Below, in pieces: positions 49,894 through 64,000 of a stretch of DNA of 64,000 nucleotides. The DNA lies in NCBI RefSeq assembly GCF_001592045.1, contig NZ_BCWB01000037.1, positions 62,001-126,000 of the forward strand, written 5' to 3'. Both the position numbers and the translations under genes were made by a program. The notes beneath the pieces were generated by a model. The model made no database searches. It was not told where the DNA came from and saw only the letters and a list, made by a program, of their open reading frames with translations. This DNA is from Thermobifida fusca NBRC 14071 = JCM 3263. Its GTDB lineage: Bacteria > Actinomycetota > Actinomycetes > Streptosporangiales > Streptosporangiaceae. Numbering within the stretch: the stretch's first letter is position 1; every line of letters starts with the position of its first letter.

Positions 49894-50811
49894 ATGACGG
49901 ACTCATCCGGCATCTCGGGCCGTAGGCTCAGTTCCATGTGGAGCCGTCTCCGAGACCGTGGCCCCAGCCGTACCGCATTCACCGGAGCGGCCTCCGTCAC
50001 GGCGTCGACCCGACTCTCCTCTCCGGTACCGCGCTCGCCCAGTTTCGACCGCACCGCCGCCTTCTTCGACGTGGACAACACGCTGATGCGCGGCGCCTCG
50101 CTCTACTACTTCGCCCGCGGACTGGCAGCACGGAAGCTCTTCACCACCCGCGACCTGATCCGCTTCGGCTGGGGGCAGCTCGTTTTCCGCTTCAGCGGGG
50201 CGGAGCAGCGGCATCACATCAACGAGGCATGCGAAACGGCGCTCGCGTTCGTCGCCGGGCGCAAGGTCTCCGACCTCGTCGCCTTGTGCGAGGAGATCTA
50301 CGACGAGACCGTGGCCGACCGCATCTGGGAAGGGGCCCGGCGGCTGGTCTACCGGCACCTCAATGCCGGACAGCGGGTCTGGCTGGTCACCGCGACCCCG
50401 GTCGAACTCGCCGACATCATCAAACGCCGCCTCGGGCTGACCGGAGCGCTGGGCACGGTCGCCGAATCAGTGAACGGGGTGTACACGGGGCGTCTCGTGG
50501 GGGACCTGTTACACGGGGCTGCCAAAGCCGAAGCGGTCCGCAAGCTCGCGAAGCTCGAAGGACTCGACCTCGCGCAGTGCACCGCCTACAGCGACTCCTA
50601 CAACGACCTTCCGCTGCTGTCCCTGGTAGGCCACCCCAACGCGGTCAACCCGGACGACGCTCTGCATCGGCACGCCCAAGCGCACGGCTGGCCGGTGCAC
50701 GACTTCCGCAGGCACCGCACCGCCCTCACCGTCGGCCTGCCGTCCGCCATGGCAGGCGCCCTGGCCGGAGGAGCCCTCGTCGGGCTGCTCCGGAATCGTC
50801 GACGCGGTTGA
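49894..50811 (+). CDS. HAD-IB family hydrolase (SerB1-like)
   Basis: A 305-residue HAD-superfamily phosphatase. Motif I is in AAFFDVDNTLMRGASLYYFA (nucleophile Asp59 and Asp61). Motif II is LVTATPVELADI, motif III the Lys near AAKAEAVRKLAKLEG, and motif IV AYSDSYNDLPLLSLVG. The C-terminal segment after residue 280 contains a short hydrophobic stretch (LPSAMAGALAGGALVGLL), possibly membrane-associated. The family includes phosphoserine phosphatase-like enzymes; the true substrate is unproven. The N-terminal 50 residues are low-complexity, and ATG 49936 is an alternative start. It is divergent from the ABM membrane gene. Confidence 0.9.
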   Translation: MTDSSGISGRRLSSMWSRLRDRGPSRTAFTGAASVTASTRLSSPVPRSPSFDRTAAFFDVDNTLMRGASLYYFARGLAARKLFTTRDLIRFGWGQLVFRFSGAEQRHHINEACETALAFVAGRKVSDLVALCEEIYDETVADRIWEGARRLVYRHLNAGQRVWLVTATPVELADIIKRRLGLTGALGTVAESVNGVYTGRLVGDLLHGAAKAEAVRKLAKLEGLDLAQCTAYSDSYNDLPLLSLVGHPNAVNPDDALHRHAQAHGWPVHDFRRHRTALTVGLPSAMAGALAGGALVGLLRNRRRG

Positions 50812-50852
50812 GAACGCGGGGAGAGAAAGCCCGTACCGGGCCGCTACGCCGC

Positions 50853-51860
50853 TCAGGTGCTGCGTGCCGGGCGACGCCGGCGCACGGAAAGCACACGCGA
50901 GGTCGCCGCCCAGGCAGCCACGTAACTGTCGAAGGCCTCCTGAGAGGTGTAGGTCGGAGACCAGTTGAGGACCCGCTGGACCTCAGTGCAGTCCAGCATC
51001 CGGGGCGTGCCCAAGCGCCGCAGTTGCTCCGGTGAGTAGGCCAACCGGTCGCGGCCTGCCAGACTGCTCAGCACGCGCAGTCCAGGGGCAGGCATCGGCA
51101 GCTTCATGGACCGCCCGGTCCGGCGCAGGCATTGTGACAAGGGGATCGTCCCCGGAGCGGCCACGTCGAACACGCCTTCCCGATCGACGAGCGCCATCCG
51201 TCGGATCACTTCCACCCCGTCGTCCTCGTGGAGGAACTGCATCCGGGGGTCGTGGCCGGGGAGCACCGGCACCCAGCGCCGCCCCAGGTAGCGCGTGAGC
51301 GGAGAGTCCACCGACGGGCCCATGAGATCGGCAAAGCGCAGCACCGCGATCGACAGGTCGGGACGGCGGCGGGCCAGGCCGCGGACGTAGCGTTCCGCTT
51401 TGGCGGCTTCCATGGCCTCGTGGAGGCGGGCCCGTGCCGCCTTGCGTGCCCGGGCCTTCGTCGCTTCTGGAACCGACTGCCCTGGCTCGGACAGACAATC
51501 GTAGACCGCGACCGTCGAACGCACCACAAGCCTGCGCACGGTCGTAGACCGCTGGCAGGCCGCCAGCAGTTGCATCGTGCCCAGGACCCCGTTGCCTGTC
51601 CTGTCTTCCCGCCCGTTGTGCGACGGTGCGAGAGCCAGCCGGAGGTGCAGCACCGTGTCTGCACCGGAATCCTGGACGGCCTCGGCAAGGCTGCCGTCGT
51701 GCAGTTCAGCCCGGATGAACTCCGCCCGCCCCAGCGGGTGCTCGGGTTCCACCGAGTCCACCCCGACCACCCGGGCTACTTCGGGATGGTCTTGGAGCGC
51801 GGTAGCCACCCTGGCCCCCAGATAGTCGGAGACCCCGGTAACGAGCACGACGCGGGCCAT
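50853..51860 (-). CDS. NAD-dependent epimerase/dehydratase
   Basis: A 335-residue extended SDR. It opens ARVVLVTGVSDYLGARVATAL, a TGxxxxxG cofactor motif, with VVGVDSVEP as the second strand. A catalytic YxxxK is not clearly present, since the RYVRGLARRRPDL segment replaces it, so the chemistry is uncertain. The length matches the GalE2-like actinobacterial epimerase that in Mycobacterium adjoins the bS22 gene. The same arrangement is seen here: bS22 lies just upstream on the same strand. Confidence 0.82.
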   Translation of the reverse strand: MARVVLVTGVSDYLGARVATALQDHPEVARVVGVDSVEPEHPLGRAEFIRAELHDGSLAEAVQDSGADTVLHLRLALAPSHNGREDRTGNGVLGTMQLLAACQRSTTVRRLVVRSTVAVYDCLSEPGQSVPEATKARARKAARARLHEAMEAAKAERYVRGLARRRPDLSIAVLRFADLMGPSVDSPLTRYLGRRWVPVLPGHDPRMQFLHEDDGVEVIRRMALVDREGVFDVAAPGTIPLSQCLRRTGRSMKLPMPAPGLRVLSSLAGRDRLAYSPEQLRRLGTPRMLDCTEVQRVLNWSPTYTSQEAFDSYVAAWAATSRVLSVRRRRPARST

Positions 51861-51982
51861 ATCGAGACTCCTTCGACTGGCTGGCGGCAGTAGCGAGGTT
51901 CTTCTCCGCGTCGCCCGGCCGCCGTGCCGTTGGGGGCCGGCAGGGGGTCGGCGCCGTCAGGCGTCCGCGGAGACAGAAAAGC

Positions 51983-52081
51983 CTACTTCTTGTTGCGGCG
52001 TGCGATGCGGGTCTTCTTCAGAAGCTTGCGGTGCTTCTTCTTCGCCATGCGCTTGCGACGCTTTTTAACAACTGACCCCAT
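51983..52081 (-). CDS. Small ribosomal protein bS22-like (AURKAIP1/COX24 domain)
   Basis: A 32-residue strongly basic peptide starting [19 protein letters not shown]. It matches the actinobacterial AURKAIP1/COX24-domain mini-protein known as bS22, which binds the small ribosomal subunit in mycobacteria. A GAGG-type site lies upstream of ATG 52081. It is next to the epimerase gene, as in Mycobacterium. It is easily missed because it is so short. Confidence 0.9.
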
Positions 52082-52287
52082 GGGATCACCACCTCGGTTT
52101 GACACGGACAGAGACATGACACGACGGGCGACTTTGGACAGGGGACCGGCCCGCCGTCTCGAAGGCGCCGGACGCCCCGCCGGGGCGCGGCACCGGGCGA
52201 GCCGCCCCAACCGAGGCGGTTGCCCAAAGGGCTAGCGTACCCGCTTCCGCCGCTGGCCGAACGCGGCTAGGGCAGAAAGCCTCGTGC

Positions 52288-52923
52288 TCAGGCACCCGGA
52301 ACCGAGGAGCTGCCCGGGTAGAGGGAAGCCGCCGGTTCCGCGTAGGAGACGCCGACCAGCCGTTCCTCTTCGAAGGTCAGCGAGGTGACGCTCGCCAGGT
52401 TGCACTGGCGCCGGTCCGGCCGATGCCACAGGCGCCGCTGTTCTGCTGCCCGCCGGGTCACCCAGATGGGCAACTGGTGGCTGACGCACACCGCTTCCCG
52501 GCCCCACGCTTCTTTGCGTACCTGGCCGATCACCTCGTTCATCCGCTGCACGATTTTGCGGTACGGCTCCCCCCACGAGGGCAGGAAGGGGTTGTACAGC
52601 CTGCGCCAGGTGCGCGGGTTGGCGATCGAACGCGAGGTGAAGGCCATGCCCTGGAAATGGTTGGCCGCCTCCACCAGCCGCTCGTCCACGGTGATCGGCA
52701 GGCCGAACGCGGCAGAGATGGGTTCCGCAGTCTCCCGGGCCCGTTCCAGCGGCGAAGAGTACAGCACCGCGATATCGCGCCCGGTGAACCACTTCGCCGC
52801 GAGTTCGGCCATCTGCCGCCCTCGCTCGCTCAAGTGGAAGTTGGGCAGTCTGCCGTAGAGGATTCCCTCGGGGTTGTGGACTTCACCGTGCCGGAGCAGG
52901 TGGATGACGGTGGTCGTGGACAT
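52288..52923 (-). CDS. Histidine phosphatase family protein (phosphoglycerate mutase-like)
   Basis: A 211-residue protein. The catalytic His12 is in VIHLLRHGEVHNPEGILYGRLPN. LYSSPLERARETAEPISAAFG supplies the second Arg, and AVCVSHQLPIWVTRRAAE the second His. ATG 52923 is preceded by AGAAGGAAAA. The members dephosphorylate small metabolites or act as mutases; the substrate is unknown. In Streptomyces a similar gene lies beside hemL, as here. Confidence 0.9.
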   Translation of the reverse strand: MSTTTVIHLLRHGEVHNPEGILYGRLPNFHLSERGRQMAELAAKWFTGRDIAVLYSSPLERARETAEPISAAFGLPITVDERLVEAANHFQGMAFTSRSIANPRTWRRLYNPFLPSWGEPYRKIVQRMNEVIGQVRKEAWGREAVCVSHQLPIWVTRRAAEQRRLWHRPDRRQCNLASVTSLTFEEERLVGVSYAEPAASLYPGSSSVPGA

Positions 52924-53091
52924 ATGCCGGACTGTTTTCCTTCTGGTTCGTTCCTGACCCGTTTCCCACTGTGGCACAACTCGGGCGGAAGTGGACTGAC
53001 CACGGCCCTTCGCCGTACCGTCCACAGCCCGCGGCACCCCGTCCGCGCTGCTGCCCGGGCAGCGCCCGTGCCTTTCCTCCGGCACAGGGAA

Positions 53092-53134
53092 ACAGCACCC
53101 CCGGCCCCGGAGCGGCGGGGCCGAGGGGTGCTGT
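53092..53134. terminator. Terminator of hemL
   Basis: A stem with outer perfect 10-bp arms (ACAGCACCCC 53092-53101, complement 53125-53134) and an inner CGGCCCC/GGGGCCG arm, beginning about 16 bases after the hemL stop on the minus strand. Confidence 0.7.
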
Positions 53135-53149
53135 CGGTGTGGCGTGCCG

Positions 53150-54442
53150 CTAGGCGACCTGGGCGGCTGCTTTCGCCGCGGCAGGAAGCGCGGAGACGAC
53201 CCGGTCCAGGGCAGCGTCGTCATGCGCGGCGGAGAAGAACCACGCTTCGAATGCGGCGGGCGGCAGGTACACGCCCTGCTCCAGCATCGCCTGGAAGAAC
53301 GCCGCGTACCGCGCGGTGTTCTGCGCGCGGGCGCCGTCGAAGTCGACGACTTCTGTGTCGGTGAAGAACACCGTGAACAGGTTGCCGCCGTGTTGGATGC
53401 GGTGCGGCACCCCTTCAGCGGTCAGCGCCTCGCTCACCGCGGCGGAGACCCGCGCCGCGGCAGCGTCGATGTGCGCGTAGACCTCGGGTGTGGCGTTCCG
53501 CAGGGTGGCAAGGCCGGCGGCGGTGGCCAGCGGGTTGCCTGACAGGGTGCCCGCCTGGTAGACGGAGCCCTCCGGGCTGAGCTGGTCCATCAGGTCGGCG
53601 CGTCCACCGAACGCGGCAGCGGGCAGTCCACCGCCCATGACCTTGCCGAAGGTCATGAGGTCCGGGGCGACTCCTTCAAGGCCGTACCATCCCGACGGGC
53701 TGACGCGGAACCCGGTGAGCACCTCGTCGAGGATGAGCAGTGCCCCGTGGCGGGCGGTGATCTCCCGCAGTTTGGCGTTGAAACCGTCGCGGGGCGGGAC
53801 CACACCCATGTTGGCGGGGCAGGCTTCGGCGATGACGCAGGCGATCTCGTCGCCGGCTTCGGCGAAGGCCGCTTCGACCGCAGCGATGTCGTTGTAGGGC
53901 AGCACGATGGTGTCTGCTGCGCTGGCCCCGGTCACGCCCGGCGAGTCGGGGAGGGCGAAGGTGGCCACCCCTGATCCGGCAGCGGCCAGCAGCGCGTCCA
54001 CGTGGCCGTGGTAGTTTCCGGCGAATTTGACCACTTTGGCGCGCCCGGTGGCCCCGCGGGCCAGGCGGATCGCGGACATCGTGGCCTCGGTGCCCGAGTT
54101 GACCAGCCGCACTTTCTCAACCGGGGTGCGCGACACGATCTCTTCTGCCAGCTCCACCTCGGCTTCGGTCGGCGCCCCGTAGGACGTCCCCTGGGCGGCT
54201 GCTTTCGCCAGTGCCTCAACGACTGCGGGGTGGGCGTGGCCGAGGATCAGCGGCCCCCACGAGCAGATGAGGTCCACATAGGTGTTCCCGTCGGCGTCGG
54301 TGAGGTACGGGCCCTTACCGGAGACCATGAACGGAGGCGTGCCGCCCACCGCTTTGAACGCCCGGACCGGGGAGTTCACCCCGCCGGGGATGACGGATCG
54401 GGCACGGTTGAACAGCTCATGCGATTTCAGATGAGTAGCCAC
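53150..54442 (-). CDS. hemL: Glutamate-1-semialdehyde 2,1-aminomutase
   Basis: A 430-residue PLP enzyme of the C5 heme pathway. It contains [20 protein letters not shown] at the N-terminus (a hallmark of HemL), [31 protein letters not shown], the Asp of [13 protein letters not shown] and the PLP lysine Lys267 in [18 protein letters not shown]. It converts glutamate-1-semialdehyde to 5-aminolevulinate. Start is GTG 54442. It is separated from hemB/hemD/hemC by rraA, pglX and the prim-pol-like gene. Confidence 0.97.
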
Positions 54443-55153
54443 GCTTTCAGTCTGTCAGCCCTCGGCCTGGAACCGTCACCGGGACATTCGACGGGTGGCG
54501 GCGTGCCTTCCGCCTTGTCCCGCGGCTCTCCAGGGCCGCGGAACTCGCGAGGGGGTTCCGCAAGCTTCACGCCCCCGAACGGGCCTGCTGTGGCGAGGCA
54601 GCTGGTCCCCAAGCTGCACCCGGTTTCGGTGGAGAACTGAGCAGACAGCAATAACAGACGACCATATTTCGGCCAATGGAAGACCGGAATAGGGGTGTTG
54701 TGGTCGGTAGCCTGCCGATGCGGGTGTCCTCGGGCCCGTTCTGATCGGGGGCGTTCCGCCGTCTAGGCCCCGCGATGCGGGATGACCTGCCCCTCTTTGC
54801 TGTGGAAAAGCCGCGGCGCATGGTTTCTCGGGCGGCCCTGAGGTGGATCCGGCCGTGTCGCGGATCAGGCGCGCCGCTTGCCGATCGGGTGAACGACTTA
54901 CTCGGAAGGCCCGCTTCCTGGCCGGTGGGAGGAGAACCGCTCCTGAGCCCGCCGGGCCCGCGCTCCGGCCCGCCGACTGCGCGGCGGCTCCCCCTCGGGG
55001 AACGGCGTGCCGCCGTGCTGCCTCGGGCCGGGACGGTCGCGGCGACCCGGCCGCAAGGACGCAGTAAACCGGAGGGTAACTTAAGACGCGTCCACGCTTC
55101 CGGGGCTTCCCGCACCGATTCCGGCCCCGCTATCGACAACCGCGGAGGACGCG
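54443..55153. other. 711-bp intergenic region between hemL and rraA
   Basis: Divergent promoters must lie here. I saw no frame with plausible codon use and motifs; fragments that look coding (for instance minus-strand 54427-54651) have random composition. Several short inverted repeats occur, as expected in GC-rich DNA. No RNA gene was identified. Confidence 0.45.
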
Positions 55154-55645
55154 ATGTCCACACCCTTCGCCACTGCCGACCTCATCGACGCCTACGGTGA
55201 CGAACTCGCCAGTTGCGAGCTCCAGTTCCGCCAGTTCGGCGGGGTACGGGCCTTCTTCGGCCCCATCCAGACCATCAAGTGCCATGAAGACAATGCCCTC
55301 GTCAAAGAAGTCCTCAACCAGCCCGGGGACGGCCGGGTGCTCGTCGTCGACGGGGGCAGCTCCCTGCGGTCTGCGCTGATGGGCGACATGATCGCCCGGG
55401 CTGCCGAACGCAACGGCTGGGCAGGAGTGGTGATCAACGGCGCGGTCCGCGACGTCGCCGAACTGGCCACGCTGTCCCTCGGCATCAAGGCGCTGGGCTC
55501 CAACCCCCGCAAGTCCGCTAAGGCAGGCGCGGGCCAAGTAGGCGTGAATGTTGCCTTCGGTCAAGTAGTATTCACTCCGGGTGCATGGCTGTACAGCGAC
55601 GAAGACGGAATCGTCGTCAGCGCCAAAGAGCTGTCTTTGCCCTGA
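55154..55645 (+). CDS. rraA: RraA-family protein (HMG/OAA aldolase-type)
   Basis: A 163-residue protein of the RraA family. It contains [16 protein letters not shown], the [17 protein letters not shown] loop and [21 protein letters not shown], in which the conserved Arg-Asp pair binds metal and substrate. RraA in E. coli inhibits RNase E; related proteins are 4-hydroxy-4-methyl-2-oxoglutarate/oxaloacetate aldolases, and actinobacterial members are more likely aldolases. CGGAGGA upstream of ATG 55154 is a good ribosome-binding site. Confidence 0.92.
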
Positions 55646-55675
55646 CCTGGCAGCCAGCCCCGTGCCGGTGAGGGA

Positions 55676-55703
55676 ACCGGTGACCACCACGGTGGCCACC
55701 GGT
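55676..55703. terminator. Near-palindrome after rraA
   Basis: A 28-bp near-palindrome with outer arms ACCGGTG and CACCGGT starts 30 bases after the rraA stop. It could fold as a terminator hairpin. Confidence 0.5.
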
Positions 55704-55753
55704 GGGAGACATCCGTCAACCCTGCCCTCACGGGTAACGACGGTGTTGGTAGA

Positions 55754-55813
55754 GGTCGTGTCCCGACGTGCCCCCCTTTTTTCCATCTCCCCCTGGTACG
55801 CCGGGACACGACC
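55754..55813. repeat. Spaced 12-bp inverted repeat upstream of pglX
   Basis: GGTCGTGTCCCG (55754-55765) and its exact complement CGGGACACGACC (55802-55813) flank a 36-base pyrimidine-rich spacer containing a run of six Ts. It could be a regulator site pair or a hairpin with a large loop. It lies about 420 bases upstream of pglX. Confidence 0.5.
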
Positions 55814-56231
55814 CGTCTGCGGCGGGTGGACGGGACATGCCGGGGATGCCCGCCCACCCGAGTTCAGGCGCGTTCATCCAGGCGCCGCAGCCGTGGGAAA
55901 CGGCTGTCACCACTCCCCAGCGCCTTGCGACTCCACTGTCCACACGGCCCCGCACACACCGAGTTGCAACGCTCGGTGAATGCTCTGCTTCAGAATGTTA
56001 CCCCTCCACGTTGGCCACGTGGGTCGATTCGCGATTTTCCCTGCACCAACCTCTTCCGCCCCGAAACCCGGTCGCATCCCGCCCGGATTCGGCATAAATG
56101 CCCCGCCCTGGTAGGCAGCAGCCTCACCTGGGGCTGAATCTCGTATTCCACCCCTGCTCATAGGCCTGCACCTGGCAGGATGAAAAGCGCGTGTGCCTGG
56201 AGAGCCGAAGCGAATCATCGAGGGAGGCGCG

Positions 56232-59200
56232 GTGGCCGACCACAAAGACCGAGGTGAGCTACTCACGGAACTACGTCACCAGGTCACGCTTCTGGAAGAA
56301 GACCTCCACTCCCGCAGCGAAGAAGACGAGTACGCGGCCGTTCTAGAGACGGAGTACCGCGCAGCCCGGCAGGCACAACGCACCGCAGCCCCCTACACCG
56401 ACTGGCGGAACGAGCGCATCACCCAAGTGGCAGCAGCCTGGGTGCTCGGCACGCTGTTCGTCCGGTTCTGCGAAGACAACGGGCTCGTCGAACAGCCCTG
56501 GATCGCCGGCCCAGGCGACCGGCTGGCTGCCGCCCAAGCCCGCCAGCGGGCGTTCTTCGCCACCACCCCCAACCTCAACGACCGCGACTGGCTGATCTCT
56601 GCTTTCGTCCACCTCGCCAAATGCCACCGCACCACTGAAGGGCTGTTCAGCCGCTCCTACAACCCGCTGTGGCAGCTCACCCCTGGGGTGGAAGCGATCG
56701 GCTCCCTGCTCGAGTTCTGGCGCCGCCGCGGCCCCGACGGCACCCTCATCCACGACTTCACCGACCCTGACCTGGACACGCGGTTCCTCGCCGAGCTGTA
56801 CCAAGAGCTCAGCGAGTCGGCGCGCGCCGCCGACGACCTGCTGCCCACGCCGGACTTCGTCGTGGACTTCCTGCTCGACCTCACCCTGGAACCGGCGATC
56901 GACGAATTCGGCCTGGACCCCGAACTCGACGTGCACGACAGCTCCGGCGCCCCCGTTTGGCGGCACCGCGGGCTGCGGACCGTGGACCCGGCCTGCGGCA
57001 GCGGCGAGTTCCTCCTCGGACTGTTCACCCGCATCCTGGCCCGGAACCGCGCGGCCGCAGGCCCCGGCGCGGACCGGTGGGAGCTCGTCCGCAAAGCCCT
57101 GAACTCGGTCCACGGCTGCGACAAGAACCCGTTCGCGGCCAACATCGCCCGGTTCCGCCTGCTCATTGCCGTGCTCCGGGAGACCGGGGCACGCCGCCTC
57201 GACCAAGCCCCGGACTTTCCCGTCCACATCGCGGTGGGCGATGCGCTACTGCATGGCCGGAACGCCGCACCCCCCGACCACAGCCTGGACGCCGACGGGG
57301 TGTTCACCTACACCACTGAAGACATCGGGGACTTGGTGCGGCGCGTCGACCTGCTTGGCCGCAACAGCTACCACGTGGTGGTGACGAGTCCGCCCGCCGT
57401 CCCGGTACGCGACCCGCAGGACAACGTCGCCTACCGTTCCCGCTACGACGTATGCTCAGGGACGTATCCGCTGGTCATCCCGTTTGCGCAGCGGATCTTC
57501 CAGTTGGCGAGCCGAGAACGCGCGGGTTTCGCGGCACAGTTCGCTCCCAGTGCGTTTCTCAGACGCGAGTTCGGCCGGCGGCTCGTTGAAGACTTCTACG
57601 GCCGCACCGTGAAACTCACCCACGTCGTCGACACCTCCGGCGCGGTCATCCCCGGCCGCACCGCTCCGACCGCCATCGTCGTCGGCCGCAACACCGACCG
57701 CGGCTGGGCTGACCCAATCCGCGAAGTCCTCGGCGTACGCAGGGAACCCGTCCCGCCGGAGAACCCCGCCCAGGGCATGGTGTGGCGCTCCATCGTGGAG
57801 AACATCCAGCGTCCCGGGATCGAAACCTCCTGGGTGCGGGTCCGTAACAGCGACCGCGACCTGCGGATCGCCCACCCGTGGTCGCTCAACGGTGACGGCG
57901 CCGACGAACTGCGGCGGCAGTTGGACACCGCCCCCGGGCGCCTCGGCGACCGAGTCGCAGAGATCGGGACCATGGCGCGGCTCCGCGACGACTGCTGTGC
58001 CATGGTCGGCGAAGACGTCCTCCGCCGGGCCGGGATCAGCCCTGCCTACCGGCGGCCCGTAGCCGACGGCGACGCCATCCGAGACTTCCACATCAGTGAC
58101 CCGGTCGTCTCCCTGTGGCCGTACGTGGCAGCAACACTCGCCCCGGAGCTCTCCCCCGAAGCGGAACGCTTCCTCTGGCCCTACCGGACCCTGCTGCGCA
58201 GCCGGGCCGACCAGAGCAGCACCCCCGACCAGCACAGCCCGCTGTGGTACGCGTACCCGGCCTTCCACACCGGCCGGTACCGTGCCCCTCTGCTGCTCGC
58301 CTACGCGGAGACCGCCACCCACCCCCACGTCGCGCTGGTCCGCGGCGGCATGGTGCTCCGGCACACCGCCCCCGTCCTGCAACTCCCCGAGGGCGCCACC
58401 GAAGACGACTACCTGCGGCTGCTGGGAGTGCTCAACTCCTCCGCGGTGTGCTTCTGGCTCAAACAGGACCCTGAGCGGGACCCCCGCGGGGCCTGGCGCG
58501 ACCCGCAGGAAGAATCCTGGGAGGAACGCCACCGGTTCACTGCGGCCCGGATGCGGAACCTTCCGCTCCCCGCCCACCTGCCCGTCGAGCCCGGGCGGAG
58601 CCTGGACACGCTCGCACGGCAAGCCGCCGCCTGGGACCCGGTCGCCCTCGCGGACCGCGAAGTACCCACTCGGCAGCGGTTCGCTGAAGCCCGCCGCGCC
58701 TCCGAAACCGTCCGGCACCGGATGGTCGCGCTCCACGAAGAACTGGACTGGCAGGTCTACGGACTCTACGGGCTGCTCTCCGAAAGCGAGGCTGCCGCCG
58801 TGCTCGCCCCCGACCCTGCCCGGATTCCCGAGATCGCTCCCGGAGAACGGGCCTTCGAAATCGTCCTCGCCCGCCAGATCGCGGTAGGGGACTCCGCCAC
58901 CACCTGGTTCGCCCGCAACGCCATCACCCCGGTCACCGAGCTCCCCCAACACTGGCCGGAAGAGTACCGCCGGGTGGTGGAAGCCCGCATCGACCTCATC
59001 GAAAAACGCCGCGACCTGGCGCTCGTGGAAAGCCCCGACTACAAGCGCCGCTGGCACTGCCCGCCATGGCAGGAGCGGCAAGGAGCTGCGCTGCGGCACT
59101 GGCTGCTGTCCCGGTGCGAACAGCGCGACCTGTGGTTCGACGCTCAGGACGGCCGGGAAGTACCGCGGCCCCGGTCGCTTGCTGACCTGGCTGAGCGCCT

Positions 59201-59819
59201 GCTGCGCGCCCCCGACCGGGACGCGGTCGCCGCGGTCGCCGAGTGGTACGCCGACGAATACCTGGGGCAGCCCGAGGCCCGCCTGGCCGACGTGCTCGCG
59301 GAACTCGTCGCCGACCAGCACGTCCCCTTCCTGGCCGCCTACCGGTACCGGGCAGCGGGCCTGCACAAGTACGCGCGTTGGCAGGAGGTGTGGGCGGCCC
59401 AGCAGGAAGAGGACAGCACCGGGCAGCGGGCAGCCGTTCCACCGCCCCCCACGTATGCGGCAGCGGACTTCCGGGCACGGTCCTATTGGGCCAACCGGGG
59501 CAGGCTCGACCTTCCCCGGGAACGGTTCGTGTCCTATCCGGGAGTGGTGTTCGCCGACGATCCCACGATGGTGGTGGGCTGGGCTGGCTGGGACGATGCA
59601 CAGCGGGCCGAAGTCCTCATCTGGCTCGTGGACTCCCGGGCCGGGCACTGGTCGCGGGAGCAGGTCATTCCCCTGCTTGCCGGAGTGTACGAGTTGTTGC
59701 CGTGGCTGCGCCGGTGGCATGGCGGCCCGCTCGCCGCACGGGTCGCGCGGTGGCTCACCGCCCAGCAGGAGCAGTACGGGCTCAGCGACGACCATCTCAC
59801 CACGTGGCGCCCTGCTTGA
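56232..59819 (+). CDS. pglX: Orphan BREX-2-type PglX methyltransferase homologue with altered motif IV
   Basis: About 1195 residues, the normal length of BREX-2 (Pgl) PglX. GTG 56232 is preceded by AGGGAGG and gives the family N-terminus (GELLTELRHQVTLLEEDLHSR); GTG 56193 is an alternative. Family signatures are ERITQVAAAWVLGTLFVRFCEDNGL (about 62-85), SAM motif I DPACGSGEFLL (252-262), HGCDKNPFAANIARFRLL, CSGTYPLVIPFAQRIFQLA, KLTHVVDTSGAVIPGRTAPT, and C-terminal YRAAGLHKYARWQEVW, YWANRGRLDLPRERF and VVGWAGWDDAQRAE. Motif IV, normally N-P-P-Y, reads T-S-P-P-A (Ser386-Ala389, 57387-57398). The protein is uninterrupted, but no pglW, pglY, pglZ, brxL or other BREX gene is nearby. PglX normally methylates host DNA; catalysis here is doubtful. 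Confidence 0.9.
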   Translation: MADHKDRGELLTELRHQVTLLEEDLHSRSEEDEYAAVLETEYRAARQAQRTAAPYTDWRNERITQVAAAWVLGTLFVRFCEDNGLVEQPWIAGPGDRLAAAQARQRAFFATTPNLNDRDWLISAFVHLAKCHRTTEGLFSRSYNPLWQLTPGVEAIGSLLEFWRRRGPDGTLIHDFTDPDLDTRFLAELYQELSESARAADDLLPTPDFVVDFLLDLTLEPAIDEFGLDPELDVHDSSGAPVWRHRGLRTVDPACGSGEFLLGLFTRILARNRAAAGPGADRWELVRKALNSVHGCDKNPFAANIARFRLLIAVLRETGARRLDQAPDFPVHIAVGDALLHGRNAAPPDHSLDADGVFTYTTEDIGDLVRRVDLLGRNSYHVVVTSPPAVPVRDPQDNVAYRSRYDVCSGTYPLVIPFAQRIFQLASRERAGFAAQFAPSAFLRREFGRRLVEDFYGRTVKLTHVVDTSGAVIPGRTAPTAIVVGRNTDRGWADPIREVLGVRREPVPPENPAQGMVWRSIVENIQRPGIETSWVRVRNSDRDLRIAHPWSLNGDGADELRRQLDTAPGRLGDRVAEIGTMARLRDDCCAMVGEDVLRRAGISPAYRRPVADGDAIRDFHISDPVVSLWPYVAATLAPELSPEAERFLWPYRTLLRSRADQSSTPDQHSPLWYAYPAFHTGRYRAPLLLAYAETATHPHVALVRGGMVLRHTAPVLQLPEGATEDDYLRLLGVLNSSAVCFWLKQDPERDPRGAWRDPQEESWEERHRFTAARMRNLPLPAHLPVEPGRSLDTLARQAAAWDPVALADREVPTRQRFAEARRASETVRHRMVALHEELDWQVYGLYGLLSESEAAAVLAPDPARIPEIAPGERAFEIVLARQIAVGDSATTWFARNAITPVTELPQHWPEEYRRVVEARIDLIEKRRDLALVESPDYKRRWHCPPWQERQGAALRHWLLSRCEQRDLWFDAQDGREVPRPRSLADLAERLLRAPDRDAVAAVAEWYADEYLGQPEARLADVLAELVADQHVPFLAAYRYRAAGLHKYARWQEVWAAQQEEDSTGQRAAVPPPPTYAAADFRARSYWANRGRLDLPRERFVSYPGVVFADDPTMVVGWAGWDDAQRAEVLIWLVDSRAGHWSREQVIPLLAGVYELLPWLRRWHGGPLAARVARWLTAQQEQYGLSDDHLTTWRPA

Positions 59820-59885
59820 CCATCGCCACGGGTCCCCTGCTCCTTTCCGCTGCGTCTCGGCGCGGTGGGACGCGGGGAGGGACGG

Positions 59886-60548
59886 CTACGACGTGGGGCC
59901 GCACACGTCGGCGAGGATGTCCAGCATCGCGATCGGGTCGGGCAGGTGCACGGGGGTGGACCGTCCGTAGGGGGAGCGGATCCATTCGACGGTCCGTCCG
60001 GAAGGCAGCAGCGACGGGGGCGCGGGAATGTAGCTGTCGCGGCAGTGCCAGCGCAGCCCCGGCATGTCCTCGACTGTCTCGGGGAAGCAGTCCAGGCGGC
60101 ACGACCACCATTCGTCTTCGTCGATCGGCGACCGGGTGGCGACGAAGAACAGATACCGTTCGGAGTCCAGGACCGCGACCGGGCCGAGGGTGAGCCCTGC
60201 ACGGTCCATCTGGGCCATGGCCATCACCCCGGCACTGGTGGGCACGTCGAGGACGTCGAAGACCCGTCCGGTGGGCAGGATGATGTTCGCCTCAGGGGTG
60301 GCGGACCACCAGCGCCGGATCGTGTCGGGGTCGGTACTGGCCTCCATCGCCCACGCGGCACTGATCGGGTGGACTCCCGGAGCCGGACAGCCCAGCCGGT
60401 CGCAGGTACAGGACCGCGGCCCCTCCCGGTTGGGTTGGGCACCCCGGCATACCGGCCATCCCAGGGCCGCGTACTCCAACGCGGCATCGACCATGGCAGC
60501 CCGTTTCTGGCGACGGCGCCTGAGTCTGCCGCCCAATACACCGACCAT
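59886..60548 (-). CDS. Prim-pol-like (bifunctional DNA primase/polymerase N-terminal domain) protein
   Basis: A 220-residue single-domain protein of the archaeo-eukaryotic primase-like group. It shows ALEYAALGWPVCRGAQPN at the N-terminus, a small zinc-like CTCDRLGC motif (residues 48-54), PISAAWAMEASTDPDTIRRWW (the DATTDPxxIxxWW-like region), and the NIILPTGRVFDVLDVP strand where the metal-binding D-x-D usually occurs. Here the second acid of that pair is replaced by Pro (DVLDVP, residues 98-103), so polymerase activity is doubtful. ATG 60548 is preferred; a longer frame starts at 60584. It is convergent with pglX, with a 66-base gap. No helicase or polymerase gene is near. Confidence 0.75.
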   Translation of the reverse strand: MVGVLGGRLRRRRQKRAAMVDAALEYAALGWPVCRGAQPNREGPRSCTCDRLGCPAPGVHPISAAWAMEASTDPDTIRRWWSATPEANIILPTGRVFDVLDVPTSAGVMAMAQMDRAGLTLGPVAVLDSERYLFFVATRSPIDEDEWWSCRLDCFPETVEDMPGLRWHCRDSYIPAPPSLLPSGRTVEWIRSPYGRSTPVHLPDPIAMLDILADVCGPTS

Positions 60549-60683
60549 GAATCCCCCATCACCTCTCGTGCCGGCCACCGACATCCGGCGCGGGAATCCG
60601 TACGGTCGGGCCCGCGGGTGTCGGGGCTGATTCCGGCTTCCTCAGCACCCGTGTGAGCCGCCGGGGAGTGGTCCGTGGTCCGG

Positions 60684-61667
60684 TCACCGCAAGAGCCGCG
60701 CTGCTTCGGTAGCCCAGTAGGTGAGGATCTGTCCGGCTCCCGCCCTCCGGTAGGAGGTGAGGATTTCCACGATCACTCGCTCCCGGTCCAGCCAGCCGTT
60801 GCGGGCTGCTGCCTCGACCATCGCGTACTCGCCGCTGACCTGGTAGGCGGAGACCGGCACGGTGACGGCTTCGGCGACCTTGGCCACGATGTCCAGGTAG
60901 GCCAGCCCCGGTTTGACCATCACCATGTCCGCTCCTTCGGCCAGGTCCAGCTCGACCTCGCGCAGCGCCTCCTTAGCGTTGGCCGGGTCCTGCTGGTAGC
61001 TGGAACGGTCACCGAACTGCGGTGCACACTCGGCGGCGTCTCGGAACGGTCCGTAGAACGCCGAAGCGTACTTGGCAGCGTAGGAGAGGATCGCGACGCC
61101 GGTGTACCCGGCCCCGTCCAATGCGGCGCGGATCGCCCCGACCTGGCCGTCCATCATGCCGCTGGGGGCGACCACATCCGTGCCGGCCTCGGCCTGGGCC
61201 ACCGCGATGGAGGCGTACCGCTCCAGGGTGGCGTCGTTGTCGACCTCGTTCCCTTCGGTGAGCACTCCGCAATGTCCGTGCGAAGTGTACTCGTCCAAAC
61301 ACAGATCGGTCATCACGACGACCGCATTGCCCAGGTCTGCGGTGAGTTTCCGCAACGCCACCTGGACGATCCCGTCGGGGTCGTCGGCTGCTGACCCGCG
61401 TTCGTCCTTGACGGCGGGAACCCCGAACAGCATGATCCCGCCGACCCCGGCCTCGACCGCTTCTTCCGCGCTCTTCCGCAGGCTGTCCAGGGTGTGCTGG
61501 TAGACGCCCGGCATGGAGCTGATCTCCTGCGGCGCGTCGATGCCCTCCTTGACGAACATCGGCAGGATGAGCTCTTCGGGCCGGACGCGGGTCTCCGCGA
61601 CCAGCCGCCGCATCGCGGCTGTGGTGCGCAACCGCCGCGGTCGCGCCAGCGGGAAACGGGCCGTCAT
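60684..61667 (-). CDS. hemB: Delta-aminolevulinic acid dehydratase (porphobilinogen synthase)
   Basis: A 327-residue enzyme condensing two 5-aminolevulinates to porphobilinogen. The Schiff-base lysines are Lys199 (SYAAKYASAFYGPFRDA) and Lys252 (MVMVKPGLAYLD). The metal loop is DLCLDEYTSHGHCG, with Cys123 and Cys133 but Asp125 in the middle, between the all-cysteine zinc type and the aspartate-rich magnesium type. The gene follows cobA/hemD on the same strand by 22 bases. Confidence 0.96.
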   Translation of the reverse strand: MTARFPLARPRRLRTTAAMRRLVAETRVRPEELILPMFVKEGIDAPQEISSMPGVYQHTLDSLRKSAEEAVEAGVGGIMLFGVPAVKDERGSAADDPDGIVQVALRKLTADLGNAVVVMTDLCLDEYTSHGHCGVLTEGNEVDNDATLERYASIAVAQAEAGTDVVAPSGMMDGQVGAIRAALDGAGYTGVAILSYAAKYASAFYGPFRDAAECAPQFGDRSSYQQDPANAKEALREVELDLAEGADMVMVKPGLAYLDIVAKVAEAVTVPVSAYQVSGEYAMVEAAARNGWLDRERVIVEILTSYRRAGAGQILTYWATEAARLLR

Positions 61668-61689
61668 ACGGGTTCTCTCCTGTCCTGAA

Positions 61690-63381
61690 TCAGATCATGA
61701 GGTTCTTACGGCGACGCCCCCGGCGCTTCTGGCTGGGCCGCAGCACGGGCTTGCCCGCTTCGATCGCCGCCTGCCGCTGGGCGGCACCGAACTCTGCGAG
61801 CGCTTCGGCCAGCGCTGCCACCGACGCCTTCGGCGCGCGGACGTCGACACGCAGGCCGAACTCTTCCGCGGTTTTCGCGGTCTCCGGCCCGATCACGGCG
61901 ATCACGGTGGTGGCGTGCGGCTTGCCCGCGATCCCGACGAGGTTGCGGACCGTGGAGGACGAGGTGAACATCACCGCGTCGAACCCGCCGCCCTTGATGG
62001 CTTCGCGGATAGGTGCGGGCGGGGGTGCGGCCCGCACCGTCCGGTAGGCGGTGACGTCGTCGACCTCCCAGCCGAGGTTCACCAAGCCTTCGGAGAGGAC
62101 CTCGGTGGCGATGTCGGCGCGGGGCAGCAGGACCCGCTCGATCGGGTCGATATCCGGGTCGTAGGGCGGCCACACTTCAACGAGCCCGGCCGCGGACTGC
62201 TTGTCCTCCGGCGGCTGCAGGTCCGGGTGGATGCCGAAGGCGCGGAGCGCGGCCGCGGTCTGCTCCCCGACCGCGGCGACTTTCACCCCGGCGAAAGCCC
62301 GCGCATCCAAACCGTAGTCTTCGATACGCTCCCGGATGGCTTTGACCGCGTTCACCGAGGTGAACGCCACCCACTGGTAGCGTCCGGTGACCAGGCCGCG
62401 GACCGCCCGCTCCATCTGCTGCGGTGTGCGCGGCGGCTCCACCGAGATCGTCGGCACCTCCTCGGGTACCGCGCCGTAGCTGCGCAACTGCTCGGAGAGG
62501 GCCGGGGCCTGCTGGCGGGTGCGCGGCACCAGGACCCGCCAGCCGAACAAGGGCTTGGTTTCGAACCAGGACAGCTTCTTCTGGCGCTGCGCCACCCCTT
62601 CCCCGACGATGAGCAGCGACGGACGGGGGATGGTGTGCCCCTTGGCGTCGGCGGCTTTCAGATCGGCCGCCAGCCGGGCCAGGGTTGAGGTGATAGTGGT
62701 CTGGTAGGTGGTCGTCCCCATCCGGGTCACCGTGACCGGTGTGGTGTCGGGCCGACCGCCGGCGATCAAGGTCTTGCAGATCCGGTCGAGGCCGGGGCCT
62801 TTCGCGTCCGGATCGTCCTCGGTGGGCGCATCCGGGTGGAGCACGACCAGGGTCGCCTTGCTCTGCGCAGCGTTGACCCAGTCCACGTCAGTGTCGGCAG
62901 CGTCGAGGATCCGCACCTCGTTGGTGCCGTGCGGCAGCAGCTCGGTTCCCGCGTAGGCAGGGACGGCGGTAATCGAGGAGAGCCCCGGCACGATCTCGAA
63001 CTCGATCCCCGCGTCGCTGGCAGCCTCGGCAAGAGCCGCGCCCTGGCCGCTCAGCAGCGGGTCGCCCGGGTAGAGGCGGACGACACGCAGTCCTTGCGCA
63101 GCCTTGGAGAGCGCGAACGCGTCACCGCTGTCCCCGTACTCGTCCGGGTCGACGATGACCGTGTCAGGGCGGCAGTGGCTCAGCAGCCCTTTCCGGTGCC
63201 GGGCAAGATGCGGCGGTTCACGGAACGTGAGGACGACGTCGGCCTGACCCAGCAGCGCGGCGCCCCGCAGTGTCAGCAGCTCGGCGTCGCCCGGTCCAGC
63301 ACCCACCAGCGCGATGTGACCGGCGGCGGGCTTGGCGGCGTGCTCGGCCCCGGTAGCCGGGGTCTCAGTCTGCGGGTTCAC
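61690..63381 (-). CDS. Fused uroporphyrinogen-III C-methyltransferase / uroporphyrinogen-III synthase
   Basis: A 563-residue bifunctional protein. Residues 20-265 are a SUMT/CobA-type methyltransferase domain (IALVGAGPGDAELLTLRGAALL, RLYPGDPLLSGQG, VPGLSSITAVPAYAG, and LLIVGEGVAQR at its end). Residues 280-545 are a HemD domain (WRVLVPRTRQQAPALSEQLR, WVAFTSVNAVKAI, VAAVGEQTAAALRAFG, FDAVMFTSSSTVRNLV, IAVIGPETAKTAEEFGL). It closes hydroxymethylbilane to uroporphyrinogen III and could methylate it to precorrin-2 for siroheme or cobalamin. This fusion is common in actinobacteria. The basic tail RRGRRRK is unusual but not unique. It lies between hemC and hemB. Confidence 0.94.
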   Translation of the reverse strand: MNPQTETPATGAEHAAKPAAGHIALVGAGPGDAELLTLRGAALLGQADVVLTFREPPHLARHRKGLLSHCRPDTVIVDPDEYGDSGDAFALSKAAQGLRVVRLYPGDPLLSGQGAALAEAASDAGIEFEIVPGLSSITAVPAYAGTELLPHGTNEVRILDAADTDVDWVNAAQSKATLVVLHPDAPTEDDPDAKGPGLDRICKTLIAGGRPDTTPVTVTRMGTTTYQTTITSTLARLAADLKAADAKGHTIPRPSLLIVGEGVAQRQKKLSWFETKPLFGWRVLVPRTRQQAPALSEQLRSYGAVPEEVPTISVEPPRTPQQMERAVRGLVTGRYQWVAFTSVNAVKAIRERIEDYGLDARAFAGVKVAAVGEQTAAALRAFGIHPDLQPPEDKQSAAGLVEVWPPYDPDIDPIERVLLPRADIATEVLSEGLVNLGWEVDDVTAYRTVRAAPPPAPIREAIKGGGFDAVMFTSSSTVRNLVGIAGKPHATTVIAVIGPETAKTAEEFGLRVDVRAPKASVAALAEALAEFGAAQRQAAIEAGKPVLRPSQKRRGRRRKNLMI

Positions 63382-63431
63382 TTCGCTCCTCTTCTCACCT
63401 GTCCGCGTCCCTGGCTTCGGCGGGACTCGTG

Positions 63432-64000
63432 TCAGCTCTCTCCTCTTCCCGCCGCGGCGTCGGCCACGATCTGATCGGCCCCCTGCTCGATCATGTCGTG
63501 GGCGAGCTGGCGGCCGAGTGCGGTGGCCGCCTGGACCGCGTCGGGGAATTCGGTGACGGTGACGGTCTGCTCGGCGCGCACAGCCTGACTGCCGTCCGTG
63601 GCGACGACCGCGGCGCGCAGGCGGAGGCGATCCTCAGCCACGAACTCGGCGTAGGCGCCCACCGGGGCGGCGCATCCGGCTTCTAGTTCCGCCAGGATGA
63701 CACGTTCCGCGGTGACCGCGGCCCGGGTGGGGAGATGGTCGACCGCGGTGAGATAGCGCAACGGTCCGGTGAAGTCGGCGGTGCGGCATTCGACGGCGAG
63801 CGCGCCCTGGCCGGGGGCAGGCAGGACCTGGTCCACGTCGAAGACGTCGGTAACGTCGTCGAGGCGGCCCACCCGGTGCAGTCCGGCGTAGGCGAGTACG
63901 ACCGCGTCGAGTTCTCCAGAAGCGACTTTGCCCAGCCGGGTCTCTGCGTTGCCGCGGATCGGCACGTAGCGCAGGTCGGGGCGGAGCGCGGCGAGCTGCG
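63432..64000 (-). CDS. hemC: Porphobilinogen deaminase (hydroxymethylbilane synthase), partial
   Basis: The 3' part of hemC; the coding frame continues past the end of the window, so the N-terminal half is missing. About 189 C-terminal residues are visible. Diagnostic segments are QLAALRPDLRYVPIRGNAETRL, AVVLAYAGLHRVGR and LPAPGQGALAVECR. LEAGCAAPVGAYAEF carries the cysteine that binds the dipyrromethane cofactor. It polymerises four porphobilinogens. It is the first visible gene of the hemC-cobA/hemD-hemB run on the minus strand, 50 bases before hemD. Confidence 0.95.
   Translation of the reverse strand, partial: QLAALRPDLRYVPIRGNAETRLGKVASGELDAVVLAYAGLHRVGRLDDVTDVFDVDQVLPAPGQGALAVECRTADFTGPLRYLTAVDHLPTRAAVTAERVILAELEAGCAAPVGAYAEFVAEDRLRLRAAVVATDGSQAVRAEQTVTVTEFPDAVQAATALGRQLAHDMIEQGADQIVADAAAGRGES

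What the first reader, a model, noticed from the sequence alone, without database searches (positions are those of the whole stretch)
56232..59819. Orphan BREX-2-type PglX with a changed methyltransferase motif IV (S-P-P-A)
The protein is colinear with BREX-2/Pgl PglX along its whole 1195 residues and has no frameshift. Its catalytic motif IV is altered from N-P-P-Y to T-S-P-P-A at 57387-57398, and the motif I histidine that I expect in PglX (GSGHF) is Glu (GSGEF). PglX normally works with PglW, PglY and PglZ, none of which is nearby. Established: N/D/S-P-P-aromatic is needed for amino methylation, and S-P-P-Y/F/W is typical of m4C enzymes. Inference: this copy has lost or changed methylation yet is kept intact, so it may be a DNA-binding decoy, an anti-phage sensor, or part of a new single-gene system. 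The Ser could arise from Asn by one base change, the Ala from Tyr by two.
Basis: partly seen in the sequence, partly recalled or inferred. Interest (0 to 1): 0.85.

Follow-up and report, generated by a model that had tools for sequence, protein, structure and literature searches.

The report
Catalytically dead BREX methylase paralogue
In the heat-loving soil bacterium Thermobifida, a second copy of a phage-defence DNA methylase has lost its catalytic residues, yet all four species examined keep it intact in the same place, which suggests a non-enzymatic job beside the normal defence system.

Summary
Window 56232-59819 encodes an intact 1195-residue BREX-2 PglX (NCBIfam NF033451, 1591 bits; cut-off 400). 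Motif IV is S-P-P-A and motif I is GSGEF.

It is a clade trait. All 4 held Thermobifida genomes carry an orthologue (68-73% identity) at the same site between an RraA-like and a Prim-Pol gene. Their motif IVs are TSPPA, TSPPH, TEPPH and ADPPY; 125 of 125 other distinct PglX surveyed have NPPY.

Frames are intact in 4 of 4 and pairwise dN/dS is 0.09-0.17, so it is no ordinary pseudogene, though a branch model shows relaxed constraint. Published Y-to-A mutants of this motif abolish or nearly abolish PglX activity.

The genome also holds pglW, pglY-pglZ-brxD-brxHI and a PglX with NPPY on three other contigs.

Best reading: a pseudo-methyltransferase kept as a non-catalytic partner or regulator of BREX-2. 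Catalytic loss is well supported; the regulatory role is inferred. A structured, Thermobifida-only RNA-like element lies upstream in all four species (55740-55866).

The parts
56232..59819 (+). Orphan BREX-2-type PglX paralogue (pseudo-methyltransferase), 1195 aa
   Evidence: Open frame; NF033451 1591 bits; PADLOC PglX; orthologue in 4/4 held Thermobifida genomes
56232..56900 (+). N-terminal helical domain (about residues 1-223)
   Evidence: AF2 model helices; homologous BrxX NTD proposed as an interaction interface (PMC12839542 section 17)
56901..57710 (+). Rossmann methyltransferase domain (about residues 224-493)
   Evidence: Pfam Eco57I 291-452; fold matches CamA, M.BseCI and BrxX
56997..57011 (+). 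Motif I GSGEF; His259 of canonical PglX is Glu here (Gln in the G003 orthologue)
57387..57398 (+). Motif IV S-P-P-A in place of N-P-P-Y
57894..58511 (+). Target-recognition region (about residues 555-760), fastest-evolving part
58722..59813 (+). C-terminal DUF7008 domain (residues 831-1194), lowest within-clade omega of the three regions in the branch model
   Evidence: Pfam PF22654, 428 bits; omega
55740..55866 (+). Conserved two-hairpin RNA-like element upstream of pglX, full-length only in Thermobifida; strand and link to the gene inferred
   Evidence: no Rfam family over its cut-off
55960..56059 (.). Second conserved intergenic block between the hairpin element and pglX, nature unknown
   Evidence: 0.40-0.72 invariant columns in 25-column bins
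55154..55645 (+). RraA-like gene, left flank of the insertion
   Evidence: Pfam PF03737; conserved neighbour
59886..60584 (-). Prim-Pol-domain gene, right flank of the insertion
   Evidence: Pfam PF09250; conserved neighbour
60684..61667 (-). hemB (delta-aminolevulinic acid dehydratase), synteny anchor
   Evidence: Pfam PF00490
53150..54442 (-). hemL-type class III aminotransferase, synteny anchor
   Evidence: Pfam PF00202; the name hemL is my reading from family and hem context

Best explanation
The gene is a vertically inherited pseudo-methyltransferase. In the ancestor of the four Thermobifida a BREX-2 pglX related to the in-locus type was placed between the RraA-like and Prim-Pol genes. 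It first lost the motif IV Asn and the motif I His, then, in the sub-clade that includes this genome, the Tyr that holds the flipped adenine. It no longer methylates DNA [well supported by inference]. The SAM-pocket motifs, the N-terminal domain and the C-terminal DUF7008 domain are largely kept, so I think it still folds, probably binds SAM [inferred], and acts through protein contacts with the BREX-2 machinery encoded elsewhere in the same genome. It would be a non-catalytic partner that tunes or buffers PglZ/PglY/PglW or competes with the active PglX [inferred, not shown]. Steps shown: intact, orthologous, catalytic motif lost, under purifying selection, surplus to a BREX-2 gene set in each genome.
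For: Orthologue in 4/4 held Thermobifida at 68-73% identity; in 345 genomes of the order nothing else exceeds 54%. Same site in 4/4; in 11 of 28 hemB loci from outside the genus RraA and Prim-Pol are seen as neighbours with no pglX between, and none of the 28 shows a pglX match. Motif IV lost in 4/4 against NPPY in 125/125 others. One clade (SH-aLRT 100), sister (96) to the in-locus BREX-2 PglX of G002/G003. Pairwise omega 0.09-0.17, omega=1 rejected by 2dlnL 221-620; the in-locus PglX pair gives 0.136. SAM motifs I-III: 0-2 of 17 near-invariant sites changed per orphan. PglX/PglZ/PglW counts are 2/1/1, 2/1/1, 2/1/1 and 3/2/2, so this gene is the surplus PglX each time. Experimental equivalents: S. 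[quoted passage not shown] E. coli BrxX Y511A abolished methylation and defence (PMC11842806, passages).
Against: No direct evidence of any contact with BREX-2 proteins; all four genomes have BREX-2 genes, so dependence cannot be tested by co-occurrence. In a branch model, omega within the clade is higher than background (0.206 against 0.085; target-recognition region 0.47 against 0.12), which also fits slow decay; the stem branch itself shows low omega (0.038), so relaxation is not seen where the first motif changes fell, though that long branch may be saturated. The basal orthologue (G003) has ADPPY, which could still be active. Near-invariant sites outside the catalytic loops have changed too (20 of 200 in this protein). 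The Y-to-A data come from other PglX proteins, and BrxX Y511A caused no cell toxicity, so an inhibitory effect of a dead PglX is not documented. No expression data were looked at. Only four genomes.
Confidence: 0.42

Rival explanations
1. A relic in slow decay: once an active second PglX, no longer needed, whose catalytic and target-recognition parts drift while the frame has not yet broken.
For: Within-clade omega about 2.4 times background overall and about 4 times in the methyltransferase and target-recognition regions. Motif IV differs in every species. Stepwise loss: basal ADPPY, derived SPPH/EPPH/SPPA. AF2 confidence is lower than for a canonical control at the same alignment depth, pLDDT 75.0 against 81.8.
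Against: No stop or frameshift in any of 4 species despite pairwise dS estimates of 0.6-2.0. Omega far below 1 in all four regions for all six pairs and in the target-recognition region proper for the four of six pairs tested (LR 19-64). Start site and upstream blocks conserved.
Confidence: 0.2
2. A protein with a role unrelated to BREX-2: a SAM- and/or DNA-binding regulator or sensor, including the reader's DNA-binding decoy or single-gene anti-phage idea.
For: Unlinked to BREX-2 genes; SAM motifs kept; target-recognition region still recognisably of a widespread type (best matches outside the clade L008, L023, L022); own conserved intergenic blocks.
Against: [quoted passage not shown] The target-recognition region is its least constrained part. 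No nuclease or effector domain in Pfam at E 0.001. The pattern scan of viral contigs found no relative, and no plasmid match reaches 60% identity.
Confidence: 0.25
3. A still active methyltransferase with changed chemistry or target (m4C, or weak m6A), helped by another subunit.
For: Pro-Pro and motif I glycines kept; S/N/D-P-P is compatible with amino methylation (recalled); G003 retains DPPY. BrxX alone was inactive and needed partners even with NPPY (PMC11842806, passages).
Against: Three sister species have SPPA, SPPH and EPPH, with no shared new motif and no aromatic residue. The Y-to-A mutants of two PglX proteins are inactive or nearly so.
Confidence: 0.1

Closest known systems
BREX-2 / Pgl PglX (NF033451; S. 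coelicolor SCO6627)
   Same: Same length, domain order, DUF7008 and SAM motifs; scores far above the equivalog cut-off
   Different: Motif IV NPPY and motif I His lost; not linked to pglW/pglY/pglZ; surplus to another PglX with NPPY
BREX-1 PglX/BrxX (PDB 8C45, 9EWZ)
   Same: Same overall fold class (VIA Z 22.4, rmsd 5.1 over 689 residues for 9ewz_C)
   Different: Those are NPPY enzymes of BREX-1 systems; sequence identity about 13% in that alignment
Solitary adenine methyltransferase CamA and M.BseCI-type enzymes
   Same: Methyltransferase plus target-recognition fold (CamA Z 24.0, rmsd 4.2, 522 residues)
   Different: Active enzymes; matched only over about residues 180-850 of this protein, so without the PglX C-terminal domain
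Pseudo-methyltransferase partners such as METTL14 (recalled, no call)
   Same: Catalytic motif degenerate, fold kept, serves as a non-catalytic partner
   Different: Unrelated lineage and substrate (RNA); used only as an analogy

Membership tests
BREX-2 PglX | Full-length match to the curated equivalog model | tested here: met
   NF033451 1591.3 bits, cut-off 400, profile 1-1181/1185
BREX-2 PglX | Motif I of the SAM pocket (DPACGSG) | tested here: met
   His after GSG replaced
BREX-2 PglX | Adenine methyltransferase motif IV NPPY | tested here: not met
   SPPA here; 0/4 in the clade against 125/125 elsewhere
BREX-2 PglX | C-terminal DUF7008 | tested here: met
   PF22654 428 bits
BREX-2 PglX | DNA adenine methylation activity | not testable with these tools
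   Needs an assay or methylome
BREX-2 system locus | pglW, pglY, pglZ (with brxD, brxHI) at the same locus | tested here: not met
   They lie on contigs C63 and C17, the gene on C37
m4C amino methyltransferase | Motif IV S/D/N-P-P-aromatic (recalled definition) | tested here: not met
   SPPA, SPPH and EPPH have no aromatic residue; only G003 has DPPY
Pseudogene | Broken frame or omega near 1 | tested here: not met
   Intact in 4/4; omega 0.09-0.17
6C RNA (RF01066), for the upstream element | Score over the Rfam gathering cut-off of 47 bits | tested here: not met
   22.1 bits, E 1.4; each of the 4 genomes has a 6C over the cut-off elsewhere

The most novel reading that the evidence does not exclude
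Thermobifida domesticated a dead PglX, with its own structured RNA leader, as a trans-acting regulator (antitoxin-like buffer or competitor) of BREX-2. This would be the first pseudo-methyltransferase regulator of a BREX system that I found any trace of, with a surviving intermediate (ADPPY) that shows how the active site was dismantled.
Probability: 0.25. Interest if true: 0.72.

Novelty: new variant of a known kind. Interest (0 to 1): 0.45.

Why it matters
The NCBIfam model used for automatic naming calls this protein a BREX-2 adenine-specific DNA-methyltransferase, an activity it very probably lacks. PglX is reported to be toxic without PglZ in Streptomyces (PMC4365076). A natural, conserved, catalytically dead PglX offers a way to separate the enzyme's methylation from any scaffolding role, and the four species give a graded series from DPPY to SPPA.

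Tried and rejected
Chance or sequencing error as the cause of SPPA: rejected, because the three sister genomes also lack NPPY. Mobile or phage origin of this clade: the pattern scan of viral contigs found no relative; 37 plasmid records match, all under 60% identity. Upstream element as 6C RNA: sub-threshold (22.1 bits, cut-off 47), and a 6C over the cut-off lies elsewhere in each genome. Type IIG restriction enzyme: a PADLOC IIG model also matches (869 bits) but below the PglX model (1315 bits), and no nuclease domain appears in Pfam. Sigma-70 promoter scan: none found; terminator-like sites 3 found against 2.1 expected. Solo-PglX pairwise dN/dS: two of three estimates diverged through saturation and are not used. 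Phase-variable homopolymer tracts: no run of 7 or more in this gene or its upstream region; one G7 in the G003 orthologue stretch.

Weak points: the 'pocket loop' windows were chosen, so their p-values are descriptive. Residue numbers are 7 higher than P0001 numbering. The first codon print used the shifted numbers and was redone. The first RNA alignment (A3) had one row on the wrong strand and was redone (A4). The AF2 model is moderate (pLDDT 75, pTM 0.54) and low in the catalytic loops, so no pocket geometry is claimed. The survey of PglX was gathered by similarity to this protein and is mostly actinobacterial.

Rows dropped: one search kept 94 of 104 matching frames (those spanning over 900 residues). 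One search added 40 further family hits that I picked as near full length; several near full-length ones were left out (for example G068:C23, G145:C37, G199:C3 and the second G141 hit). One search used 38 relatives of the 66 loci. One search covered 67 of the loci held. Rfam was run on window 50000-64000 and 55640-56240 only.
Full report
WHAT IS THERE. The frame at 56232-59819 (+) is open over 1195 codons. It matches the BREX-2 PglX equivalog NF033451 at 1591 bits against a cut-off of 400, from residue 9 to the end, the PADLOC PglX model at 1315 bits, and Pfam DUF7008 over residues 831-1194. Motif IV is S386-P-P-A389 at 57387-57398 and motif I is GSGEF.

WHICH ORGANISM. The genome is G000, 3.64 Mb in 82 contigs, with the window on contig C37. 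A held relative of the same genus, G002, has a contig of 1,471,109 bases; the record Thermobifida cellulosilytica TB100 scaffold1 has the same length, and the two PglX proteins are identical in the tree. The genus is therefore Thermobifida.

A CLADE, NOT A ONE-OFF. All 4 held genomes of the genus carry an orthologue at 68-73% identity. Among 345 genomes of the order the next best match is 54%. The four form one clade (SH-aLRT 100), sister (96) to the PglX that sits inside BREX-2 loci of G002 and G003 (quick tree of 94 rows). Motif IV reads TSPPA (G000), TSPPH (G001), TEPPH (G002) and ADPPY (G003); motif I reads GSGEF in the first three and GSGQF in G003. Among 125 distinct other PglX proteins, 125 have NPPY; 121 have GSGHF and 4 have GSGGF. 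The codons fit a stepwise path: G003 keeps Tyr and has Asp in place of Asn, while the other three have lost the aromatic residue.

SAME SITE. In all four the gene lies between an RraA-like gene and a Prim-Pol gene, with hemL and hemB outside. The hemB search (61 genomes) gave 28 loci from outside the genus, each with about 1.5 kb of flank. In 11 of the 28 RraA and Prim-Pol are both seen, 35-547 bases apart between match ends, with no pglX between; in 6 Prim-Pol lies next to hemL instead; in the other 11 one of the two genes is out of range or absent. None of the 28 has a pglX match. One insertion in the ancestor of the four Thermobifida explains this.

SELECTION. Pairwise omega is 0.09-0.17 for the six pairs, and omega=1 is rejected each time (2dlnL 221-620); the in-locus PglX pair gives 0.136. 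By region omega stays below 1 in every pair; in the target-recognition region proper it is 0.15-0.28 for the four of six pairs tested, against 0.19 for the in-locus pair. A branch model on nine sequences tells the other side. Omega within the clade is 0.206 against a background of 0.085 (2dlnL about 108 against the stem-only model), 0.21 against 0.053 in the methyltransferase domain, 0.47 against 0.12 in the target-recognition region and 0.14 against 0.054 in DUF7008; the stem branch gives 0.038, below background. Long background and stem branches are near saturation, so these values are rough. The gene is thus constrained, but in this model less so than an active PglX. Of 237 near-invariant sites this protein has changed 32, the G001 and G002 orthologues 27 each and the G003 orthologue 11, against 0-3 in five canonical Thermobifida PglX. 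SAM motifs I-III have 0-2 changes of 17; the loops around motif IV and two later loops have 4-10 of 20 (these windows were chosen after the fact).

CATALYSIS. Two published mutants mimic part of the change. In S. coelicolor PglX, Y381A of NPPY did not restore phage resistance and methyltransferase activity was almost undetectable (PMC4365076, passages and section 6 read). In E. [quoted passage not shown] This gene carries the same Tyr-to-Ala change plus loss of the Asn. That three sister species have three different non-aromatic motifs argues against a new chemistry.

BREX-2 ELSEWHERE. The own genome has pglY-pglZ-brxD-brxHI on C17, pglW on C63 and a second PglX with NPPY on C16. In the genus there are two arrangements. 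One is pglW, one or two HTH genes, pglX, pglY, pglZ, brxD in G002 and G003. The other is pglY-pglZ-brxD-brxHI without a linked pglX in G000, G001 and G003, the same three genomes that hold a solitary NPPY PglX; pglW is directly upstream in G003, about 14 kb upstream in G001 and on another contig in G000. Counts of PglX/PglZ/PglW are 2/1/1, 2/1/1, 2/1/1 and 3/2/2 for G000-G003. The dead copy is the surplus PglX in each.

STRUCTURE. An AF2 model (39 sequences, pLDDT 75.0, pTM 0.54) matches CamA (Z 24.0, 522 residues) and BrxX 9ewz (Z 22.4, 689 residues). A canonical control folded with the same sequences gave pLDDT 81.8, with higher values in the methyltransferase region. The fold appears retained; the lower confidence fits an eroded active site but is weak evidence. 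A 2026 survey describes the BrxX N-terminal domain as a possible interaction surface for other BREX proteins (PMC12839542, passages and section 17 read), which fits a role through contacts.

UPSTREAM ELEMENT. About 370 bases before the gene lies a block that is 87-92% identical to the other three species. Its core (55763-55862) has 0.68-0.96 invariant columns per bin, against 0.54-0.64 for third codon positions of Prim-Pol and hemL. It folds into two hairpins (z -3.2 on the plus strand, -2.5 on the minus strand). In 4 sequences 3 pairs change on both sides and 98.7% of cells pair, against 33-44% when partners are slid; 12 of 500 shuffles reach these values, and the structure was taken from one of the four sequences. 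Rfam gives no family over its cut-off. A covariance model finds only the four Thermobifida copies with E below 1e-20 in 67 loci that include RraA/Prim-Pol junctions of relatives; the next hit is the antisense of one copy at E 0.026. A DNA search found it in 4 of 150 family genomes, plus short weak matches (30-41 bases) in 4 others. Whether it is the leader of pglX or a separate RNA is unknown.

MECHANISM. Shown: orthology, site, loss of motif IV, intactness, purifying selection, surplus to a BREX-2 gene set. Inferred: no methylation, SAM binding kept, action through protein contacts on BREX-2. The relic reading, a role outside BREX and residual activity remain open, at about 0.2, 0.25 and 0.1.

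PRINT. Searches for PglX with Thermobifida (none), orphan PglX and NPPY (10 papers listed), orphan, solitary or inactive PglX (20 of 23 papers listed, none of the listed ones holding a PglX term), inactive paralogues (2 papers, listing only) and type 2 BREX (15 of 27 listed) showed no report of this gene or of a dead PglX clade. The 2026 BREX survey has no occurrence of 'orphan', 'solo', 'Thermobifida' or 'NPPY' in its main text; its supplements were not seen. PMC11341690 was seen in passages only. The library holds open-licence papers only.

Noticed in passing
window 55740-55866: Two-hairpin RNA-like element with a C-rich loop, conserved in four Thermobifida species and not found full length elsewhere in what was searched; resembles 6C RNA only below the cut-off.
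   Followed up: partly
L118, L119, L120 (G000, G001, G003): BREX-2 clusters pglY-pglZ-brxD-brxHI with no linked pglX; the same three genomes carry a solitary NPPY PglX elsewhere, so PglX may work in trans.
   Followed up: partly
L011:3-1565 (own genome C16): The solitary NPPY pglX has third-position GC of 0.67 in its second half, against 0.79-0.92 in called genes of the window's last 18 kb, which suggests later acquisition.
   Followed up: no
window 57456-59795, minus strand: A 779-aa open frame antisense to pglX; probably a by-product of GC-rich codons.
   Followed up: no
window 55960-56059: A second conserved intergenic block with a terminator-like match at 56018-56033; such matches are at chance level in this region.
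   Followed up: no
L082 (Streptomyces violaceusniger) and G294:C25: pglX homologues with broken frames (21 stops in the frame read for L082; 2 TGA and 1 TAG in G294), showing that pglX can decay in other hosts.
   Followed up: no
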